Shown in pieces: positions 7 to 7,416 of a stretch of 64,000 bases of DNA. A program made the translations under genes and the position numbers. The stretch is from assembly GCA_018266455.1 (NCBI GenBank), contig JAFEAJ010000041.1, positions 1-64,000 of the forward strand, read 5' to 3'. The notes below the pieces were generated by a model. It did no database searches and was not told the DNA's origin. It was given only the letters and a program-made list of their open reading frames with translations. Within the stretch, counting starts at the first letter, position 1, and each line of letters opens with the position of its first letter. Source of the stretch: Bacteroidota bacterium (lineage in GTDB: Bacteria; Bacteroidota; Bacteroidia; Chitinophagales; Chitinophagaceae).

Positions 7-333
7 ATGAAACAGTGTAGCAGGCGTTCAAAAATCAGGTATGCATCAGCGTTAATTGCGCTGTTGCTGATCTCCGGTCTTTGTAAATCCCAAACCGCGG
101 ACGGCAATGCCGGTATCAACCAGGCGAACACTACGGTCCGCGGCTATTTTGACGCGGGCACTAACCTCATGTATGCTGTCGGGGCCATCCTCGGGCTTAT
201 CGGGGCAGTAAAAGTCTATCAAAAATGGAACCATGGCGACCATGATACAGGAAAGGTCGCCGCAGCATGGTTCGGCTCCTGTATATTTTTAGTCATCGTG
301 GCTACGGTGCTCAAATCTTTCTTTGGATTGTAA
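7..333 (+). CDS. traE: Conjugal transfer protein TraE (DUF4134 family)
   Basis: Small 108-residue membrane protein of the Bacteroides-type conjugation system. An N-terminal signal/membrane segment (about residues 11-28) is followed by two hydrophobic stretches around LMYAVGAILGLIGAVKVY and GSCIFLVIVATVLKSFF, separated by a short charged loop. The family (DUF4134) is the small VirB2-like inner-membrane component encoded just before TraF and TraG in CTnDOT-like elements. That order holds here, except that a lipoprotein gene is inserted between traE and traF. The stop codon is immediately followed by a palindromic GCCCCGCC element. The window starts only 6 bases upstream, so the ribosome binding site cannot be judged. 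Confidence 0.85.
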   Translation: MKQCSRRSKIRYASALIALLLISGLCKSQTADGNAGINQANTTVRGYFDAGTNLMYAVGAILGLIGAVKVYQKWNHGDHDTGKVAAAWFGSCIFLVIVATVLKSFFGL

Positions 334-542: not shown

Positions 543-1907
543 ATGAAAAAATATATCAGTCTAATCATCATTTCTGCCTTCGTATTTTCCTGTAAAAAAC
601 AGGACACGAGCGCGCCTGGACAACCCCAAAAATTCGACAGCCACTATTTATCTAACGTCAAAGCCTACCTGCAAATAAACCTGTCTTCTGCTGACTACAG
701 TGAAGTGGACACTGACAGGTTATCGCTGAGCAAACAAAACGGCGCCTGGTTTTTACGGATAGGCATCACCGGGAATGATATCGCCAGAGACTTTATCTTA
801 TTGCAGACAGACAGCAACGGAAATTGCCTGAACGGAAATTTTGTCCATCTGAGGCGGGACTCCGGCGACAGGTCATCTTTCAATGGCAAAATCTCTATTG
901 AGTCCCTCAGCCATGAAAATCCGGTCTACCGGAAAGTCACTGACGGTATCGCCCAAACGCTGAGCTGCGGCGAGAATGAAGAGTCGATCGATAAAATAGA
1001 AACAGATGCCTGTGATATCGTGCCTTCCTATGATTGCACCGGTTGCCTTCCTGAAGTAATCGTGATCGGTTATGTGACCAGCGGCAGCCCTGGCGGAGGA
1101 GGTGGCGGGATCAGCTTTAGCGATTATTTAAATCTTGCAGCGCTCGCAGGCGGCACCGGGTCAGGCGGGACTTATACGGGAAATTCATCGGGTGTCTACA
1201 GCCCTGTTAATCCTCCTTTGTATACAGGTGGCGGATCATCTGTGCCCCCGGCAAAGGTCAGCCCCGATGTCACCATCAATTATTCAACAGAGTATGCCAA
1301 ACCGGGTATCGATGTGAACGCTTTCATGAAATGTTTCTCCACTATCCCTGATGATGGAGCGACCTGTTCGGTAACCATTTTCACCGATCTTCCCGTCAAT
1401 GACGATCCTGAATATATCTTTAATATACTCACGGGCGCAACAGGCCATTGTTTTTTGCAGCTGACCAAAACAAACGGAACCCAATCGGTGACCCAGATCG
1501 TTGGGAAGACCACCTCAAAAGTAGTCGCCGTGCTGGGGTTCCCTGTACCTGGTAAAATTGTAGACAACAGCATCCACAAATACAATGCCTCGCTGACCAT
1601 GAATATCAGCCCTCAGCAATTGCAAACAGAGATCAACAGCATCACAGCTATCGGGAACAATCCCCGGTATGATATCTGGGAAAACAATTGTGTCGACTAT
1701 GCCGTGGGCATCTTAAATAAGATCAGGCCCTCAAACCCTCTGGAGGTCGTTAAGTTGTTAGACCCGATGAGCGGTGACCTGTATAACACTCCCCAGGGAT
1801 TATACATGGCGCTTGATCAGCTGAAACAGGCAAACGGAGCGGAAGCAAAAAATATAGTTACCGGTGTGGTGCAACGTGCGGGGACAAGCCACGGGGCATG
1901 TAATTAA
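543..1907 (+). CDS. Lipoprotein with permuted papain-like (NlpC/P60-type) C-terminal domain
   Basis: Predicted 454-residue lipoprotein. The start at 543 is preferred over an upstream frame-open ATG at 426 because it gives a lipoprotein signal peptide with lipobox VFSC (Cys17). The middle is Gly/Ser-rich and low in complexity (about residues 190-255). The C-terminal part has a GHC motif with His302 and an NNCVDYA motif with Cys383. His-before-Cys order with NNC is the arrangement of circularly permuted papain-like hydrolases and acyltransferases (YiiX/LRAT/PPPDE-like). I infer a cysteine hydrolase facing the periplasm or cell surface. It lies between traE and traF, where CTnDOT-like operons normally have nothing, so it is a cargo or accessory transfer gene. 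Peptidoglycan or lipid cleavage during mating is possible but not shown. Confidence 0.6.
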   Translation: MKKYISLIIISAFVFSCKKQDTSAPGQPQKFDSHYLSNVKAYLQINLSSADYSEVDTDRLSLSKQNGAWFLRIGITGNDIARDFILLQTDSNGNCLNGNFVHLRRDSGDRSSFNGKISIESLSHENPVYRKVTDGIAQTLSCGENEESIDKIETDACDIVPSYDCTGCLPEVIVIGYVTSGSPGGGGGGISFSDYLNLAALAGGTGSGGTYTGNSSGVYSPVNPPLYTGGGSSVPPAKVSPDVTINYSTEYAKPGIDVNAFMKCFSTIPDDGATCSVTIFTDLPVNDDPEYIFNILTGATGHCFLQLTKTNGTQSVTQIVGKTTSKVVAVLGFPVPGKIVDNSIHKYNASLTMNISPQQLQTEINSITAIGNNPRYDIWENNCVDYAVGILNKIRPSNPLEVVKLLDPMSGDLYNTPQGLYMALDQLKQANGAEAKNIVTGVVQRAGTSHGACN

Positions 1908-1938
1908 GCCCCGCCCAACCCTCTCCCCTGGGAGAGGG
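1908..1938. repeat. GCCCC-led palindromic element, copy B
   Basis: The lipoprotein stop TAA is immediately followed by GCCCCGCCC and then a perfect 9-bp stem CCCTCTCCC/GGGAGAGGG (1919-1927 and 1930-1938) with a 2-nt CT centre. The layout matches copy A: stop codon, GCCCCGCC, then the palindrome. Confidence 0.6.
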
Positions 1939-1966: not shown

Positions 1967-2284
1967 ATGCATACCAGTATTTATAAAATAAACAAGAACA
2001 TCAACAAGCCCATTGAGTTCAAGGGCCTCAAGGCGCAGTACATATGGTGGCTGGGTGCTGCGGTGATCGGGCTGATGATCCTGTTTGCGATCATGTACAT
2101 CGCAGGCATCAATGCTTACCTATGTGTTGTTGTGATTTTAATGGCAGGTGGATTCTCCATTCATTTTATCTACCGGCTCAGTAATAAATATGGTGAGCAC
2201 GGCATGAAAAAAAAGATCGCTAAAAGAAGCATACCGAAAACAATCAGGATTTATAACCGGAAAATATTTTTCTTCGCACAATGA
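1967..2284 (+). CDS. traF: Conjugal transfer protein TraF (DUF4133 family)
   Basis: A 105-residue inner-membrane protein with two adjacent hydrophobic segments (about residues 26-46 and 50-70) and a basic C-terminal tail. This is the size and layout of the DUF4133/TraF family of Bacteroides conjugative transposons, a VirB3-like partner of the TraG ATPase. The N-terminal INKNINKPIEFKGLKAQYIWW segment is typical of the family. The stop codon overlaps the next gene's start in an ATGA, so the two are translationally coupled. Confidence 0.85.
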   Translation: MHTSIYKINKNINKPIEFKGLKAQYIWWLGAAVIGLMILFAIMYIAGINAYLCVVVILMAGGFSIHFIYRLSNKYGEHGMKKKIAKRSIPKTIRIYNRKIFFFAQ

Positions 2285-2748
2285 AAAATGAGATCACGAT
2301 AAGGCCGGCAAAGAACCATGACGCGCGGAAAATATTCAACTTCCTCTGTGAACTGGAAGAACAATTGTTCGACCAGCAGGAATTTGAGATCAATTACCGG
2401 CTCTGCCTGGCGGACATCAACAATATTTATCTCGTGGCAGCCGGTACAGATAATGTAGCCATCGGATATATCAGCTGTCATGGCCAGATACTCCTGCATC
2501 ATGGCGGGATGGTCTTTGAAGTGCAGGAACTCTTCGTGGAAAAACCATACCGCAACAAAGGAGTAGGCAGACAACTTTTGAAAGGGCTTGAGGGGTACCT
2601 GAACAAAAGAGCATACAAATCGCTCGAAGTCGCCGTGAACAAGCACAGGGCTTCCGCCAGAAAATTTTATATCAGCGAAGGGTTTGAAGAAACGCATGTG
2701 AAACTGGTCAGAGCCCCCCACCCCCCTAAAGGGGGAGAAGGAAAATAA
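2281..2748 (+). CDS. GNAT-family N-acetyltransferase embedded in the tra operon
   Basis: A 155-residue single-domain acetyltransferase. The acetyl-CoA binding motif A is visible as LFVEKPYRNKGVGRQLL (about residues 84-100, with R/N-x-G-x-G), followed by the motif B region LEVAVNKHRASARKFYISEGFEE, where a C-terminal Tyr and Phe are usual. It overlaps traF by 4 nt and precedes traG, so it is cotranscribed with the transfer genes although acetyltransferases are not part of the core machine. The last dozen codons and the stop are supplied by a palindromic repeat, so the native C terminus was probably replaced. The substrate is unknown. Confidence 0.8.
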   Translation: MKNEITIRPAKNHDARKIFNFLCELEEQLFDQQEFEINYRLCLADINNIYLVAAGTDNVAIGYISCHGQILLHHGGMVFEVQELFVEKPYRNKGVGRQLLKGLEGYLNKRAYKSLEVAVNKHRASARKFYISEGFEETHVKLVRAPHPPKGGEGK

Positions 2749-3002
2749 CCGATATAAGACAGAGTTTTTAATCAGTGAAGAAAGAATGGTGATGGAACGG
2801 AATTTAAAAGACATATTGCCTAAACTTGATGTCGGGAACGATATGATACTCTCGAAGGCCCCCCGGCCCCCTAAAGGGGGAGAAGGAAAATAACCCATAT
2901 AAGTCAGAGTTTTTAATCGGTGAAGAAAGAATAGTGATGGAACGGAAATTAGAAGACATATTGCCTATACTTGATGTCGGGAACGATATGATACTCTCGA
3001 AG
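2713..3002 (+). repeat. 145-bp tandem duplication covering the 5' end of traG
   Basis: Two consecutive units, 2713-2857 and 2858-3002, are each exactly 145 bp and differ at about nine positions by my count. Each unit starts with GCCCCCC and the palindrome CCCCCTaaAGGGGG (stems 2722-2727/2730-2735 and 2867-2872/2875-2880). It continues through the same ribosome-binding region (GAAGAAAGAAT) and encodes the first 22 residues of TraG. The first unit is cut off by the second unit's palindrome, while the second unit runs into intact traG. The palindromes are copies C and D of the family also seen at 334, 1908 and 7400. Confidence 0.9.
2792..2893 (+). pseudogene. Truncated copy of the traG 5' end (33-codon ORF)
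   Basis: The first tandem unit keeps a start codon and a ribosome-binding region like that of traG, and 22 codons nearly matching the start of TraG (DILPKLDVGNDMILSK against DILPILDVGNDMILSK). It then reads into the palindrome as APRPPKGGEGK and stops at 2893, 43 bases before the real traG start. It is most simply a duplication relic. Because its initiation signals are intact it could be translated as a leader peptide, although nothing in the sequence proves this. Confidence 0.7.
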
Positions 3003-5381
3003 CAAGGAGACATAACGATTGCTTTTGAAGCTTTTCTTCCTGAAATCTTCACACTGTCGAACGAAGAATACGAGCGCTTTCACCAGGCCTGGATAAAAGC
3101 CATCAAAATATTGCCGGTGCATTCCGTCTTTCACAAACAGGATTGGTTTACCCGGGCAAAACACGAAGCAGATTTTTCAACACAGGACACTAGTTTTCTA
3201 TCCCGCAATTCGGAAAGGTTTTTCAATGAGCGGCCTTACCTCGACCACCATTGCTATATTTTTCTCACGAAAAAACCGGCGGGCAGGAAATTGTCTTCTT
3301 CAGTCTTTTCAAATCTTTTGCGAAAATCGATTGTGCCAGATGAGACATTGGACGCACAGTTGTTACAGGAATTTTCAGGTGCGGCAGGACAATTCAGGCG
3401 AATCCTGGAAGACAGCGGCTTTATCAGCCTGCAGCAGATGAAAAACGATAAATTGATGAGCACAAAGGGCAAAGCAGGCATCATTGAGAAATATTGCTTC
3501 CTGCTCGAAGATGAAAAGCTAATCATAAAAGACATTTCGTTTGCGGAAGGCGTCCGGGTCGGAAATCAGTTTTGCCAGCTCTATACACTTAGCAACCCGG
3601 CAGACCTTCCTTCGCTTTGCGGCTCCCGCATCAACTATGATAAGTATTCTACAGACAAAACAAAATTCAGTGTCGGTTTTGCTTCCACGCTCGGGCAGTT
3701 GCTGCCCTGCAACCATATTTACAACCAGTACATCTTTACCGGTGATGCACAGAAAACCATAAAGCAGCTCGAGAGCAAAAGGCTAAGGCTGCAGTCGCTC
3801 TCTGCATATTCGAGGGAGAACGCAGTTGCCAAAGAAGCCGTGAACGATTTTTTGAACGAAGCGGTTGGCGACGGGAGACTGCCTGTCAAAGCGCATTTCA
3901 ATGTCCTTGCCTGGGCAGACGATAAAGAGCAATTAAAAGATTTAAGGAACCTGGTATCATCAGCCATCGCCCAGATGGATACGGCACCGAAGCACGAGCT
4001 GGACGGAGCGCCCCAAATCCACTGGGCAGGCATACCGGGGAACGAAGCGGACTTTCCGATGAACGATGCTTTCGACACGTTTGCGGAACAGGCCTGTTGT
4101 TTTCTAAATCTTGAATCGAATTACCGGTCATCGTTATCTCCTGTCGGTATACGTTTAGGTGACCGGCTAACGGGAAGGCCTATCCATGTCGATATATCTG
4201 ATGAACCGGTTAAAAAAGGGATCACTACGAACAGGAATAAATTTATTCTCGGCCCATCGGGGTCAGGCAAGAGTTTTTTCACCAACCACATGGTACGTTC
4301 CTATTATGAGCAGGGAACACATGTCGTTCTCGTCGATGTCGGGCATTCCTATAAAGGATTATGCGATATGGTGAAGGGATATTATTTCACTTACTCGGAA
4401 ACCAACCCGATAAAATTTAACCCTTTTTATATTGATGGCGTTTTGGACACCGAAAAAAAGGAATCGATCAAAACTTTGCTCCTTGCGCTCTGGAAAAGGG
4501 ACAATGAAAATTTTAACCGTTCGGAGTATGTCGCGCTGTCCAATGCATTGCAGCTATATTATGAGCGCAATAAAAAATTCCCATGTTTTGACTCTTTCTA
4601 TGAGTTCCTGAAAGACGATTTTGTACAAGTGCTGCAAAAAGATAATGTAAAAGATAAAGATTTCGATGTCTCTAATTTTCTTTACGTGGTGAGGCCTTAT
4701 TACAAAGGGGGAGAATTTGATTACCTGCTCAACGCAAAGGAAAATCTTGATCTGTTGAACCAACGCTTCATCGTCTTCGAGCTTGACAATATAAAAGACC
4801 ATCCGATCTTATTTCCGGTAGTGACCCTTATCATTATGGAAGTGTTCATCTCAAAAATGAGAAAGCTAAAAGGAATCCGTAAAATGATCCTTATCGAAGA
4901 AGCCTGGAAGGCAATTGCTAAAGAAGGGATGGCGGAGTACATTAAATATCTTTTTAAAACCGTCCGCAAATTTTTTGGAGAGGCAATCGTCGTCACACAG
5001 GAAGTCGAGGATATTATTTCTTCTCCCGTGGTGAAGCAGGCCATCATCAATAACAGCGACTGCAAAATCCTGCTCGACCAAAGCAAATACCAGAACAAAT
5101 TTGACCAGATCCAGGAATTGCTTGGCCTGACAGAAAAAGAAAAAGCACTGGTGCTCTCCATCAATAAGGCAAACGACGTGTCAAAAAAATACAAAGAGGT
5201 CTTTATCTCTCTCGGCGGCACGCTTTCCCGTGTGTACCGGACAGAAGTGTCAATGGAAGAATACCTGGCCTATACCACAGAAGAAACGGAAAAAATAAAA
5301 GTGCAGGAATATGCCAAACAATTTGGCGGCGATATCCGAAAAGGAATCACCGCAATGGTTGCAGCGATGCACGGGCCATAA
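2937..5381 (+). CDS. traG: Conjugation ATPase TraG (VirB4-like)
   Basis: About 814 residues, the usual size for the Bacteroidota TraG/VirB4 ATPase that powers assembly of the mating channel at the inner membrane. It has a family-specific N-terminal domain (about residues 1-400) and an AAA-like motor domain. Walker A GPSGSGKS is at residues 439-446. Walker B is in MILIEEAW (about 650-657), followed by VTQEVEDI and a late ILLDQSKYQNKFDQI motif typical of VirB4 proteins. GTG at 2934 directly precedes ATG 2937 in frame, and I chose the ATG. The 5' end is duplicated upstream. TraE and TraF precede it and three TraI-like genes follow, as expected for this operon. Confidence 0.93.
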   Translation: MERKLEDILPILDVGNDMILSKQGDITIAFEAFLPEIFTLSNEEYERFHQAWIKAIKILPVHSVFHKQDWFTRAKHEADFSTQDTSFLSRNSERFFNERPYLDHHCYIFLTKKPAGRKLSSSVFSNLLRKSIVPDETLDAQLLQEFSGAAGQFRRILEDSGFISLQQMKNDKLMSTKGKAGIIEKYCFLLEDEKLIIKDISFAEGVRVGNQFCQLYTLSNPADLPSLCGSRINYDKYSTDKTKFSVGFASTLGQLLPCNHIYNQYIFTGDAQKTIKQLESKRLRLQSLSAYSRENAVAKEAVNDFLNEAVGDGRLPVKAHFNVLAWADDKEQLKDLRNLVSSAIAQMDTAPKHELDGAPQIHWAGIPGNEADFPMNDAFDTFAEQACCFLNLESNYRSSLSPVGIRLGDRLTGRPIHVDISDEPVKKGITTNRNKFILGPSGSGKSFFTNHMVRSYYEQGTHVVLVDVGHSYKGLCDMVKGYYFTYSETNPIKFNPFYIDGVLDTEKKESIKTLLLALWKRDNENFNRSEYVALSNALQLYYERNKKFPCFDSFYEFLKDDFVQVLQKDNVKDKDFDVSNFLYVVRPYYKGGEFDYLLNAKENLDLLNQRFIVFELDNIKDHPILFPVVTLIIMEVFISKMRKLKGIRKMILIEEAWKAIAKEGMAEYIKYLFKTVRKFFGEAIVVTQEVEDIISSPVVKQAIINNSDCKILLDQSKYQNKFDQIQELLGLTEKEKALVLSINKANDVSKKYKEVFISLGGTLSRVYRTEVSMEEYLAYTTEETEKIKVQEYAKQFGGDIRKGITAMVAAMHGP

Positions 5382-5388
5382 ATAAAAA

Positions 5389-5419
5389 AGGTATTGTGGC
5401 CTGGTAGCCTGCAATACCT
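5389..5419 (+). other. Intra-operon hairpin between traG and the traI-like gene
   Basis: AGGTATTG (5389-5396) pairs with CAATACCT (5412-5419), and an inner GGC (5398-5400) pairs with GCC (5407-5409). This gives an interrupted 11-bp stem a few bases after the traG stop. No T-run follows, so it is unlikely to be a simple terminator. An mRNA processing or attenuation structure is possible. Confidence 0.45.
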
Positions 5420-5477
5420 CGTTAACCAAAACTTTACGAACTGCCGGACAAATCTAAATCCCCAAAAACAGAGACAA

Positions 5478-6173
5478 ATGAAAATACTATCCACAACCTG
5501 TGCATTAAGTGTAAAGAGGGCTGCATTATCACTTGCTATAATATTGTTTGCTTCAGTTGCAGAGGCGCAGATCCCCGTCATCAGTGTAATCACTACACTG
5601 GCTAAAAAAGTCATCAATGCAATTGACCTGGAGGTTGAGAACCTGCAGAACCAGACCGTAGAACTGCAGAACGTTCAAAAGGCCCTGGAGAACGCCATGT
5701 CGAAACTGCAGCTTGACGGCATTACGGATTGGGTGCAAAAGATCAAAGACCTGTATAGCGAATACTACCAGGAACTATCGCAGGTCAAACAAATCATCTC
5801 AGATTATGACAAAGTGAAAAGCATCACCCAATTGCAGGAACGGATCGTATGGGAATACCAATCAGCCTATGCGCTTTTCAAGCAGGACAAACATTTTACT
5901 TCGGGTGAGATGACCTATATGTACAATGTGTACTCGGGGATTATACATGAAAGCATAAAAAACCTGGAGCAGGCAACATTGGTGATCAGTCCGCTCGCGA
6001 CACAGATGACCGATGAGAGCAGGCTTAACATAATCAACACCGCTTTCACCGGCATGCAAAAAAACTACAATGACCTGAAAGCGTTCAATAGCCAGAACAT
6101 CCAATTGAGTTTGCAGCGCGCTGCTGATGCGAATGACCTGCAAACAGTCAAACAATTATATGGGTTGCCATGA
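5478..6173 (+). CDS. traI: Conjugal transfer protein TraI-like, exported coiled-coil protein (paralog 1)
   Basis: Predicted 231-residue periplasmic protein. ATG 5478 is preferred because it begins a clear signal peptide (ALSVKRAALSLAIILFASVAEAQ, cleavage near residue 31). The mature part is largely helical, with a coiled coil around residues 44-75 (heptad-like LENLQNQTVELQNVQKALENA). Position and length fit the TraI protein of Bacteroidota conjugative elements, often proposed to be VirB5-like. The C-terminal half is homologous to the next two genes (pattern YNVYSGI, then MTDESRL, then QRAADANDLQTVKQLYGLP). Its stop overlaps the next start by 4 nt. Confidence 0.75.
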   Translation: MKILSTTCALSVKRAALSLAIILFASVAEAQIPVISVITTLAKKVINAIDLEVENLQNQTVELQNVQKALENAMSKLQLDGITDWVQKIKDLYSEYYQELSQVKQIISDYDKVKSITQLQERIVWEYQSAYALFKQDKHFTSGEMTYMYNVYSGIIHESIKNLEQATLVISPLATQMTDESRLNIINTAFTGMQKNYNDLKAFNSQNIQLSLQRAADANDLQTVKQLYGLP

Positions 6174-6790
6174 AAAAAACAATTGTCATATTAGTCGCTA
6201 CTCTGTCGATTGGATTCGTGAAAGCGCAAGGCCTGAGCAATTTCTTTTCACAAAAGCAGGCCGATATCAAATATATGCTGGCGCAGATCGCGGAACTGCA
6301 AACTTATATCGGGCTGTTGCAGAAAGGTTATGGCATCGCACAGAAAGGATTAACCGTGATCGGTGATTTGAAAAAAGGGGAATTTGATCTGCACAGCGCA
6401 TTTTTTTCCTCCCTTGAAACCGTCAATCCTTCCATCGCCAAATATGCAAAGGTTGCGGGCATCATTTCTAACCAGGTTTCGATTATGAGTTCGTTCAAAA
6501 AAATATTACAGCTAAAAAATATGTCCGCATCCGAAATGAGCTACCTCCAAAGTGTTTATAACAACATGAGCGGAGCATGCGCTGAATCGCTGACTGATCT
6601 GATCAATATTATCACAGATAATACTTACCAGATGAAAGACAATGAGCGTATCACAAGGATTGACGCCATCTATGCCGATATGAAAGATAAATATGCCTTC
6701 ACCCAAAGTTTTGCAAGCGATGCCTCAGTACTTTCCGCTCAGCGTGGCAATGACTTACATGAAATTGAATTTTTAAAAAACCTGAACTAA
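6170..6790 (+). CDS. TraI-like exported helical protein (paralog 2)
   Basis: A 206-residue protein with a signal peptide (MKKTIVILVATLSIGFVKAQ). It shares its C-terminal half with the flanking genes: EMSYLQSVYNNM, then DNERITRIDAIYADMKDKYAF, then LSAQRGNDLHEIEFLKNL. Close relatives are often labelled as TerB tellurite resistance proteins in automatic annotation. The context (4-nt overlap with traI, between the VirB4 and VirB6 homologues) argues for a role in the mating apparatus, perhaps as a VirB5-like tip or periplasmic subunit. Functional differences among the three paralogs cannot be read from sequence. Confidence 0.65.
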   Translation: MKKTIVILVATLSIGFVKAQGLSNFFSQKQADIKYMLAQIAELQTYIGLLQKGYGIAQKGLTVIGDLKKGEFDLHSAFFSSLETVNPSIAKYAKVAGIISNQVSIMSSFKKILQLKNMSASEMSYLQSVYNNMSGACAESLTDLINIITDNTYQMKDNERITRIDAIYADMKDKYAFTQSFASDASVLSAQRGNDLHEIEFLKNLN

Positions 6791-6792
6791 AA

Positions 6793-7416
6793 ATGAAAAA
6801 GATAATTTTCGTTTTTGCAATATTATACTCTTTAAGTGCGAATGCGCAGAGCTATGAACTGGAGCGGCTGATACTTGATATTGAAAAGCTGGCACAGTTA
6901 AAAGATATTTTGAGCGATCTGTATAAAGGATACGAGATTTTAAATAATGGCTACAATACCATTAAAAATATCTCGGAGGGCAATTTCAGCCTGCACCAGG
7001 CATTTTTGGATGGCTTATTGATGGTAAGCCCTGCCATCAAAAATTATCAGCATGTGGCAGATATCATCGATTACCAGGCAAGGATCGTATCAGAATACAA
7101 ATCGGCTTTTAATGTGTTCCGGCAGGATAAACATTTCAATCCGGATGAGATCAGCTACTTAAGTAATGTATACAACAATCTGGTGAGCGGCGGCCTTGCG
7201 AATCTTTCTGATCTTTTGAATATACTAACGGATAAGGTCATGCGCATGTCGGATGATGAGCGCCTTCGTGCCATTGATGAGATATATGCAGACACCAAAG
7301 ACAAATATCTTTTCTTGAGGCAATTCAATAACGGTACAACAATACTTGCCGCACAAAGGGCAACTGAAGAAAACGATATAGGGACATTGAAAAGACTATA
7401 CCCCCTGGCCCCCTGA
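6793..7416 (+). CDS. TraI-like exported helical protein (paralog 3)
   Basis: A 207-residue protein with a signal peptide ending near SANAQ. It is closest to paralog 2 (DEISYLSNVYNNLVSGG, DDERLRAIDEIYADTKDKYLF, LAAQRATEENDIGTLKRLYPL), so the pair looks like a recent tandem duplication. It starts 2 bases after the paralog 2 stop, so translation is probably coupled. The last codons (CCC CTG GCC CCC TGA) belong to a GCCCC-type palindrome, which supplies the stop codon. Role inferred as for paralog 2. Confidence 0.65.
   Translation: MKKIIFVFAILYSLSANAQSYELERLILDIEKLAQLKDILSDLYKGYEILNNGYNTIKNISEGNFSLHQAFLDGLLMVSPAIKNYQHVADIIDYQARIVSEYKSAFNVFRQDKHFNPDEISYLSNVYNNLVSGGLANLSDLLNILTDKVMRMSDDERLRAIDEIYADTKDKYLFLRQFNNGTTILAAQRATEENDIGTLKRLYPLAP

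What the first reader, a model, noticed from the sequence alone, without database searches (positions are those of the whole stretch)
543..1907. Permuted papain-like lipoprotein between traE and traF
A lipobox, a GHC motif (His302) and an NNC motif (Cys383) in that order suggest a circularly permuted papain-like hydrolase at the cell surface, embedded in the transfer operon. It may aid passage through the envelope, modify the recipient, or provide entry exclusion.
Basis: partly seen in the sequence, partly recalled or inferred. Interest (0 to 1): 0.55.

Follow-up and report, generated by a model that had tools for sequence, protein, structure and literature searches.

The report
Toxin-like lipoprotein within conjugation operon
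A gene wedged among the DNA-transfer genes of a Bacteroidota mobile element encodes a membrane-anchored enzyme of a known lipid- and protein-cutting kind; its relatives often sit beside a small membrane protein, as bacterial toxins sit beside their antidotes, but this copy has none.

Summary
Window 543-1907 encodes a 454-aa lipoprotein (Cys17) between traE (DUF4134) and traF (DUF4133). His302 and Cys383 are invariant in 50 of 50 aligned C-terminal domains, down to 13% identity, as is Tyr376, 7 residues before the Cys in all 50; together they are the signature of circularly permuted NlpC/P60 enzymes. The family profile's first four PDB hits are permuted papain-like enzymes, though weak (E 0.09-0.3). 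AlphaFold models were too poor to test the fold.

The context suggests an effector more than a transfer part. In 16 of 23 relatives with both halves, a dedicated four-helix membrane protein follows directly; other relatives carry unrelated small genes there. A following multi-helix ORF is seen in 17 of 51 family genes and 0 of 77 other lipoprotein ORFs. The traE-traF junction holds an insertion in 27 of 68 resolved tra operons. The window copy and its closest relative lack the partner.

Best reading: an effector-type, probably lipid-directed permuted NlpC/P60 lipoprotein carried as tra-operon cargo. Activity, target and delivery are untested.

The parts
543..1907 (+). lipoprotein gene, 454 aa, between traE and traF
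   Evidence: family alignment A1
543..593 (+). lipoprotein signal peptide, lipobox FSC with Cys17, then KKQ
   Evidence: sequence; Cys17 column is Cys in 31 of 35 members
594..1052 (+). N-terminal domain of unknown fold (residues 18-170)
   Evidence: profile A8 search: 22 matches at E<1e-30, 21 of them at genes that also gave a C-terminal match (exception G013, a short ORF)
1047..1292 (+). linker: LPEVIVIGY motif and Gly/Ser-rich stretch (residues 169-250)
   Evidence: sequence and alignment
1293..1904 (+). C-terminal permuted NlpC/P60-like domain (residues 251-454)
   Evidence: alignments A9 and A10; PDB and Pfam searches
1446..1448 (+). His302, predicted catalytic
   Evidence: invariant 50 of 50
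1668..1670 (+). Tyr376, predicted active-site tyrosine at Cys-7
   Evidence: invariant 50 of 50, spacing 7 in all 50; compare PPPDE1 Tyr101/Cys108 in PMC3142127 (passage)
1689..1691 (+). Cys383, predicted nucleophile
   Evidence: invariant 50 of 50
1332..1334 (+). Cys264, predicted disulfide partner of Cys453
   Evidence: both Cys present in 29 of 35 members, both absent in 6 of 35
1899..1901 (+). Cys453, penultimate residue, predicted disulfide partner of Cys264
7..333 (+). traE (DUF4134)
1967..2284 (+). traF (DUF4133)
2281..2748 (+). GNAT-family acetyltransferase between traF and traG, found near traE only here and in L031 among 116 traE loci
2934..5381 (+). traG conjugation ATPase
   Evidence: P-loop_TraG, E 3.6e-229

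Best explanation
The gene encodes an effector-type lipoprotein: a lipid-anchored N-terminal scaffold, a Gly-rich linker and a C-terminal circularly permuted NlpC/P60-like cysteine enzyme (His302, Tyr376, Cys383) braced by a Cys264-Cys453 disulfide. Shown here: the invariant residues, their order and spacing, the co-occurring cysteines, the lipobox, the tra-operon location, and a dedicated small membrane protein directly downstream in most close relatives. Inferred: the domain attacks an acyl or amide bond in the envelope of a neighbouring cell, most likely phospholipid or lipoprotein acyl chains, as characterised permuted NlpC/P60 enzymes do; the downstream membrane protein of the relatives is the producer's immunity protein; and location in the tra operon means the enzyme is made when the cell makes its conjugation apparatus and touches other cells. 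The copy in this window has lost, or never had, that immunity gene, so either its substrate is absent from its own cell or another protein protects it.
For: Catalytic signature: H302, Y376 and C383 in 50 of 50, Y-to-C spacing 7 in 50 of 50, matching the Cys/His/Tyr set of permuted NlpC/P60 enzymes and the PPPDE1 spacing in PMC3142127 (passages). Fold kin: the profile's first four PDB hits are 6v98 ('Cysteine hydrolase', recalled to be TseH), PPPDE 3ebq and 2wp7, and a PPPDE-domain protein 7whm (E 0.086-0.3); at E<=1, 22 of 50 members hit Pfam C97/PPPDE (best 1.6e-5), 9 Lnb_N, 4 LRAT. Oxidising compartment: C264 and C453 both present in 29, both absent in 6 of 35. Immunity-like partner: directly downstream in 16 of 23 relatives with N- and C-terminal parts (15 within 60 bp, L032 at 125 bp); the partner family has 29 matches in 21 of 294 genomes, 19 of the 29 directly after this gene (compared by eye); other homologs have different small genes at the same spot, c14-type ones in tandem copies in L054. 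Control: a following ORF of 90-230 aa with 3 or more hydrophobic segments in 17 of 51 family genes against 0 of 77 other lipoprotein ORFs. Precedent: Tox-Act1, a permuted NlpC/P60 phospholipase effector with a two-TM immunity protein, related to DUF4105/Lnb and TseH (PMC12994826 passages).
Against: The window copy and L031 have no partner (traF follows directly; profile A7 finds none at E<=0.001 in the window's genome). Seven of 23 relatives have no intact A7-type partner within 125 bp, and some homologs without the N-terminal part (L067, L068, L175, L177) have no ORF of 60 aa or more directly downstream on the same strand. 24 of 51 family genes have no small ORF directly behind them, and 12 of 77 controls do. 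Sequence links to named families are weak: hhalign probabilities of 1-3% and Pfam scores that, where shown, are below curated cut-offs. Both structure models failed and Foldseek gave no match at E<=0.001. No toxicity, substrate, surface exposure or delivery route was tested.
Confidence: 0.5

Rival explanations
1. A component of the transfer process: an envelope hydrolase or acyltransferase that loosens peptidoglycan or remodels membrane or lipoproteins where the conjugation channel is built, so that no immunity gene is needed.
For: Same traE-lipoprotein-traF-GNAT-traG order in the window and L031, both without the partner; predicted envelope location; constraint on the C-terminal part between the two.
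Against: The gene is near traE in only 12 of 116 surveyed loci, 16 of which were held because of this family; 16 of 23 relatives have an immunity-like partner, and 10 of 23 show no tra gene within the fetched stretch, some of it short.
Confidence: 0.15
2. Surface or entry exclusion: a lipoprotein plus a small polytopic inner-membrane protein that stop a second copy of the element from entering, like TraT and TraS of F (recalled).
For: A lipoprotein gene upstream of traE in 9 of 116 surveyed loci, most with the membrane protein gene behind it. One element keeps the partner without the lipoprotein (L073).
Against: Active-site residues are invariant over great divergence; the same C-terminal domain occurs in proteins with no tra gene in the fetched stretch and with unrelated neighbours; the window copy has no membrane partner.
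Confidence: 0.1
3. An ordinary lipid- or lipoprotein-modifying enzyme (Lnb-like) with no role in conflict, carried as cargo.
For: Lnb_N is among the profile matches; partnerless homologs exist.
Against: Tight pairing with small membrane proteins in the close relatives and diverse small genes in others; the genome already has an Lnb_N protein (G000:C44).
Confidence: 0.15
4. A decaying passenger: an orphan effector that lost its partner and is on the way out.
For: No partner; fast evolution, with the lipoprotein 53% and TraG 85% identical between window and L031; broken relatives exist elsewhere (L061, L069, L070, L180, L181).
Against: Intact frame and all invariant residues in both; in the C-terminal part third codon positions differ at 66% against 24% and 19% for first and second, so it has been kept under constraint.
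Confidence: 0.1

Closest known systems
Tox-Act1 / Imm-Act1 (T6SS effector, permuted NlpC/P60 phospholipase; PMC12994826, passages seen)
   Same: permuted His...Cys core, membrane immunity protein encoded downstream (compare the relatives' partner); Tox-Act1 is toxic in the periplasm and kin to DUF4105/Lnb and TseH
   Different: T6SS-delivered; the passages seen describe no lipoprotein and no tra operon; immunity has two TM helices against four to five hydrophobic segments here; no direct sequence comparison was made
PPPDE / DeSI (Pfam C97, PDB 3ebq, 2wp7)
   Same: most frequent Pfam hit (22 of 50 at E<=1); Tyr-Cys spacing of 7 (PPPDE1)
   Different: characterised members are intracellular eukaryotic enzymes; scores seen here are below the Pfam cut-off; no lipobox (recalled)
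Lnb (DUF4105, Pfam Lnb_N)
   Same: Bacteroidota, envelope, His/Cys permuted domain; GH and NC motifs fall in register in the profile alignment (E 0.032, probability 1.6%)
   Different: window score 12.8 bits against cut-off 22.2; Lnb is a lipoprotein N-acyltransferase according to PMC12994826
YiiX/YaeF (Peptidase_C92) and LRAT families
   Same: permuted NlpC/P60 group
   Different: profile comparison with 20 C92 proteins is no better than negative controls (E 0.4); LRAT hits 4 of 50 members; Tyr-Cys spacing is 13 in YiiX and 27 in its Bacillus relative (from residue numbers), not 7
SitA lipoprotein toxins of myxobacteria (PMC5562445, passages seen)
   Same: outer-membrane lipoprotein with a C-terminal toxin domain, downstream immunity gene, carried on a mobile element
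   Different: the C-terminal domains tested there are nucleases; spread by outer-membrane exchange; varied C-termini on related N-termini, whereas here one C-terminal domain sits on several N-termini

Membership tests
circularly permuted NlpC/P60 (papain-like) enzymes | catalytic His precedes catalytic Cys, both invariant | tested here: met
   H302 and C383 in 50 of 50 aligned domains, spacing 75-91; five broken ORFs were not aligned
circularly permuted NlpC/P60 (papain-like) enzymes | conserved active-site tyrosine before the Cys | tested here: met
   Y376 in 50 of 50, 7 residues before the Cys in all; feature from PMC3142127, where the spacing is 7 in PPPDE1, 13 in YiiX and 27 in BcPPNE
circularly permuted NlpC/P60 (papain-like) enzymes | third polar residue on the strand after the His | tested here: inconclusive
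   Q318 is Q in 27 of 50, R in 10, otherwise mixed
circularly permuted NlpC/P60 (papain-like) enzymes | papain-like core in three dimensions | tested here: inconclusive
   models with mean pLDDT 46.3 and 33.9; Foldseek, no match at E<=0.001
PPPDE (Peptidase_C97) | score above the Pfam gathering cut-off of 29.2 bits | tested here: not met
   no match for the window protein; members whose scores were shown reach at most 25.3 bits; bit scores of the 22 members were not shown
Lnb_N (DUF4105) | score above the Pfam gathering cut-off of 22.2 bits | tested here: not met
   window domain 12.8 bits
YiiX (Peptidase_C92) | profile similarity above controls | tested here: not met
   hhalign E 0.4, within the control range
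polymorphic toxin / effector-immunity systems | catalytic domain at the extreme C-terminus of varied secreted proteins | tested here: met
   mostly lipoproteins of about 410-580 aa, a 1016-aa protein (L169), short forms of about 240 aa
polymorphic toxin / effector-immunity systems | dedicated small immunity gene directly downstream | tested here: inconclusive
   met for 16 of 23 close relatives; not met for the window copy and L031
polymorphic toxin / effector-immunity systems | toxicity neutralised by the partner | not testable with these tools
   needs expression in a laboratory strain
TraT/TraS-type exclusion | reduces entry of the same element | not testable with these tools
   needs mating assays

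The most novel reading that the evidence does not exclude
Bacteroidota conjugative elements carry, inside the tra operon, a conjugation-coupled effector-immunity module: a surface lipoprotein with a permuted NlpC/P60 lipid-attacking domain that acts on cells touched during mating, with a four-helix immunity protein that marks cells holding the element. In the window lineage the partner is gone and the enzyme has been recruited as a working part of transfer.
Probability: 0.15. Interest if true: 0.75.

Novelty: new variant of a known kind. Interest (0 to 1): 0.52.

Why it matters
A permuted NlpC/P60 toxin with a membrane immunity protein was characterised in 2026 as a T6SS effector (PMC12994826, passages). 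This would be a lipoprotein version in Bacteroidota, tied by position to conjugation genes, in a family for which I found no model: the window protein reaches no curated cut-off in Pfam or NCBIfam and has no PHROG hit. It makes two questions testable with gene removals: whether conjugative elements of Bacteroidota arm their donors against neighbours, and whether a partnerless member has become part of transfer.

Tried and rejected
Structure: two AlphaFold jobs, both on window plus L031 only because the tool bars the other loci; pLDDT 46 and 34. Viral contigs: three profile scans found no relative; plasmids and phages none. Named families for the window protein itself: only sub-cut-off CutC and MltC scores, no PHROG; PADLOC and NCBIfam on the 50 domains gave stray hits, each family on one member. 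A catalytic role for His345 was rejected: it is another residue in 12 of 50. L071's 261-aa neighbour as an immunity gene was rejected: similar-looking proteins lie at the traE-traF junction of L223 and L280 without the lipoprotein (judged by eye). A palindrome-repeat origin for the insert was not pursued: one other site in the genome. A first hhalign run used a wrong option and is discarded (redone in 62 and 106). NLPC_P60 scored E 0.014 and Lnb_N 0.054, against 0.15-0.73 for eight unrelated sets, at probabilities of 3.2% and 1.0%; too weak to name a nearest family.

Rows dropped: L049, L052, L055, L057, L061, L069 and L070 (broken, near-duplicate or with an unclear start) were left out of alignment A1; L180 and L181 (broken before the Cys) out of A10. 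Three of the 20 matches, the weakest (E about 5e-4: G446, G315, G376), were not fetched as longer stretches or aligned, and L083 and L084 were not examined. In one search L061, a fragment fused to its partner frame, counts among the 23, and c14 next to L060 was missed by the overlap limit. The traE survey took 100 of about 118 listed DUF4134 places that I did not already hold, from a capped list; because places beside known relatives were already held, its 0 of 100 is not an independent estimate. Split traE loci (L047, L060, L069) were not in it, and 48 of its 116 loci showed no traF within reach. The association with DUF4134 across genomes (24 of 41 against 70 of 253, Fisher p 1.4e-4) is not corrected for kinship.

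Full report
What is there. The window starts at base 1 of an 82 kb contig of a 3.9 Mb genome. Genes run traE (DUF4134, 7-333), lipoprotein (543-1907), traF (DUF4133, 1967-2284), a GNAT acetyltransferase (2281-2748), traG (2934-5381), then further genes on the same strand, labelled traI-like, traJ, traK, traL, traM and traN here by recalled order, to about 12.9 kb. The lipoprotein has a lipobox at Cys17, a 150-residue N-terminal domain, an LPEVIVIGY plus Gly-rich linker, and a 204-residue C-terminal domain.

Family. A single-sequence search finds relatives in 41 of 294 genomes of the same family. One more (L031, record JAFEAE010000013.1, a Bacteroidetes MAG) is 53% identical and has the same traE, lipoprotein, traF, GNAT, traG order. 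A C-terminal profile finds 18 of 395 genomes of the phylum, the weakest at E about 5e-4. Plasmid and phage records and viral contigs gave none. The C-terminal domain ends varied proteins: the usual lipoprotein, lipoproteins with other N-termini, short proteins of about 240 aa, and a 1016-aa protein.

Active site. In 35 members seven residues are invariant: Pro284, Gly301, His302, Gly321, Tyr376, Asn382, Cys383. With 15 more distant members, down to 13% identity, five remain: Gly301, His302, Gly321, Tyr376, Cys383. Homologous ORFs broken before the Cys (L061, L069, L070, L180, L181) and three weak matches that were not aligned are outside these counts. The distance from His to Cys varies from 75 to 91 residues, but Tyr is 7 residues before Cys in all 50. 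Passages of PMC3142127 give Cys, His, a polar residue and a tyrosine as the catalytic set of permuted NlpC/P60 enzymes; the spacing is 7 in PPPDE1 (Tyr101/Cys108) but 13 in YiiX and 27 in BcPPNE. The polar third residue is unclear: Gln318 is Gln in 27 of 50.

Fold. Sequence evidence is consistent but weak one by one. The 50-sequence profile ranks 6v98 ('Cysteine hydrolase', which I recall to be TseH; E 0.086), two PPPDE structures (3ebq 0.088, 2wp7 0.098) and a PPPDE-domain protein (7whm 0.3) as its first four of 177,635 PDB sequences. At E<=1, Pfam C97 is hit by 22 of 50 members (best 1.6e-5), DUF4796_C by 9, Lnb_N by 9, LRAT by 4 and RTE1 by 3; PMC10318531 passages place C97, LRAT and DUF4796 among papain-like families. 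The scores I could see are below curated cut-offs. hhalign gives Lnb_N E 0.032 (35 sequences) and 0.054 (50 sequences) and NLPC_P60 0.11 and 0.014, against 0.14-0.95 and 0.15-0.73 for eight unrelated sets; all probabilities are 3.2% or less. The Lnb_N alignment puts GH on GH and NC on NC. AlphaFold failed with two sequences. I put the permuted papain-like assignment at about 0.9, mainly on the His/Tyr/Cys signature, and leave the nearest named family open.

Location of the domain. Cys264 and the penultimate Cys453 are both present in 29 of 35 members and both absent in 6. Such all-or-none pairing fits a disulfide and hence an oxidising compartment outside the cytoplasm; the six without may be few lineages, so it is not 35 independent events.

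The partner. Of 23 relatives with N- and C-terminal parts (window not counted), 16 are followed directly by a protein of 124-165 aa with four to five hydrophobic segments. Of the other seven, L042 has the same gene with an in-frame stop (G232), L061 is fused to it, L060 and L063 have a c14-type gene, L072 a 218-aa gene, L050 a gene 318 bases on, and L031 has traF. The partner family has 29 matches in 21 of 294 genomes, 19 of them directly after this gene; the other ten include one in a second tra operon of G227 where the lipoprotein is missing (L073), contig edges, weak matches, and some with no tra gene recognised nearby (L074-L076). Homologs with other N-termini are followed by other small genes: c14 types with one hydrophobic segment or none (three in a row in L054), proteins that look multi-helix (L056, L169, L176), others that look secreted (L171) (partly by eye). 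Four others (L067, L068, L175, L177) have no ORF of 60 aa or more directly behind on the same strand. In a control, 27 of 51 family genes against 12 of 77 other lipoprotein ORFs of the same loci are followed by an ORF of 90-230 aa, and 17 of 51 against 0 of 77 by one with three or more hydrophobic segments; the 51 are related to each other, so the p-values of that call overstate. Diverse small genes behind one catalytic domain is what effector-immunity pairs look like (polymorphic toxin passages, PMC3482391). The window copy and L031 lack any such gene, and the window's genome has no match to the partner profile. In the tree, window, L031 and L045 group together (89/99; window with L031 98/90) in a modestly supported cluster (87/92) that also holds all 17 rows labelled partner-bearing, L042 among them, so loss is plausible, not proven.

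Setting. Of the 23 relatives, 13 have a gene of the tra block (c2, traE, traF or traG) downstream on the same strand within 12 kb or as far as was fetched, and 11 have a Crp-like regulator gene within 600 bases upstream. The survey holds 116 traE loci: 100 newly fetched, 15 already held, and the window. 68 show traF downstream; 27 of these have more than 150 bases between traE and traF, filled by varied genes: a protein with a sorting domain, a gene that looks like a DNA methylase, small unknown proteins. The lipoprotein is in that slot in 3 of 68 (window, L031, L071) and upstream of traE in 9 of 116. All 12 are among the loci held because of the family; none of the 100 others has it within about 6 kb, but those were taken because they were not already held, so this only shows that the first search missed none there. 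The traE-traF junction is thus an accessory slot and the lipoprotein looks like cargo, not core.

How it most likely works. An effector-type lipoprotein enzyme attacks an acyl or amide bond in the envelope of neighbouring cells, with a membrane protein as the producer's protection in most close relatives. The best precedent is Tox-Act1 with Imm-Act1 (PMC12994826, passages): a permuted NlpC/P60 phospholipase, toxic in the periplasm, with a two-helix membrane immunity protein and kinship to DUF4105/Lnb and TseH. A lipoprotein as toxin carrier has a precedent in SitA (PMC5562445, passages). Shown: signature, partner, location. Inferred: toxicity, lipid target, delivery, the reason for the missing partner. 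Literature: the listings, each cut to 5-15 papers, showed no paper on this family or on such a gene in tra operons by title and abstract start; supplements were not read.

Verdict. Observation confirmed; enzyme class supported by sequence; proposed roles in transfer or exclusion not shown. New variant of a known kind, interest 0.52.

Noticed in passing
window 2696-2985: Two direct copies of a 145-nt unit (88% alike) back to back, covering the end of the GNAT gene and the start of traG.
   Followed up: no
window 2281-2748: A GNAT acetyltransferase gene between traF and traG, found near traE only in the window and L031 among 116 traE loci, two that lack the partner.
   Followed up: partly
window 1919-1938: Overlapping matches to the palindromic pattern CTCTCC...GGAGAGGG just after the lipoprotein gene; one other site in the genome.
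   Followed up: partly
window 5394-7416: Three tandem, mutually similar traI-like genes, also present in other elements.
   Followed up: no
L047 840-2967; similar ORF in L069: traE is split by an insert coding a group II intron reverse transcriptase/maturase (RVT_1 and GIIM, for L047); L060 and L069 also have split traE, and one search shows an ORF of the same cluster in L069.
   Followed up: partly
L073 6345-8759: Crp-like regulator, partner, c2, traE, traF with the lipoprotein missing: an orphan partner gene in the tra operon.
   Followed up: partly
L254 6865-7128: An 88-aa small lipoprotein-like ORF in the traE-traF gap of a genome of the window's genus (G282).
   Followed up: no
L198, L214, L222, L223, L224: A recurrent 412-416 aa gene in the traE-traF gap; the L198 copy has a Por secretion C-terminal sorting domain.
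   Followed up: partly
L169 6461-9950: A 1016-aa protein with repeated stretches ends in the same catalytic domain and is followed by a 143-aa protein that looks multi-helix.
   Followed up: no
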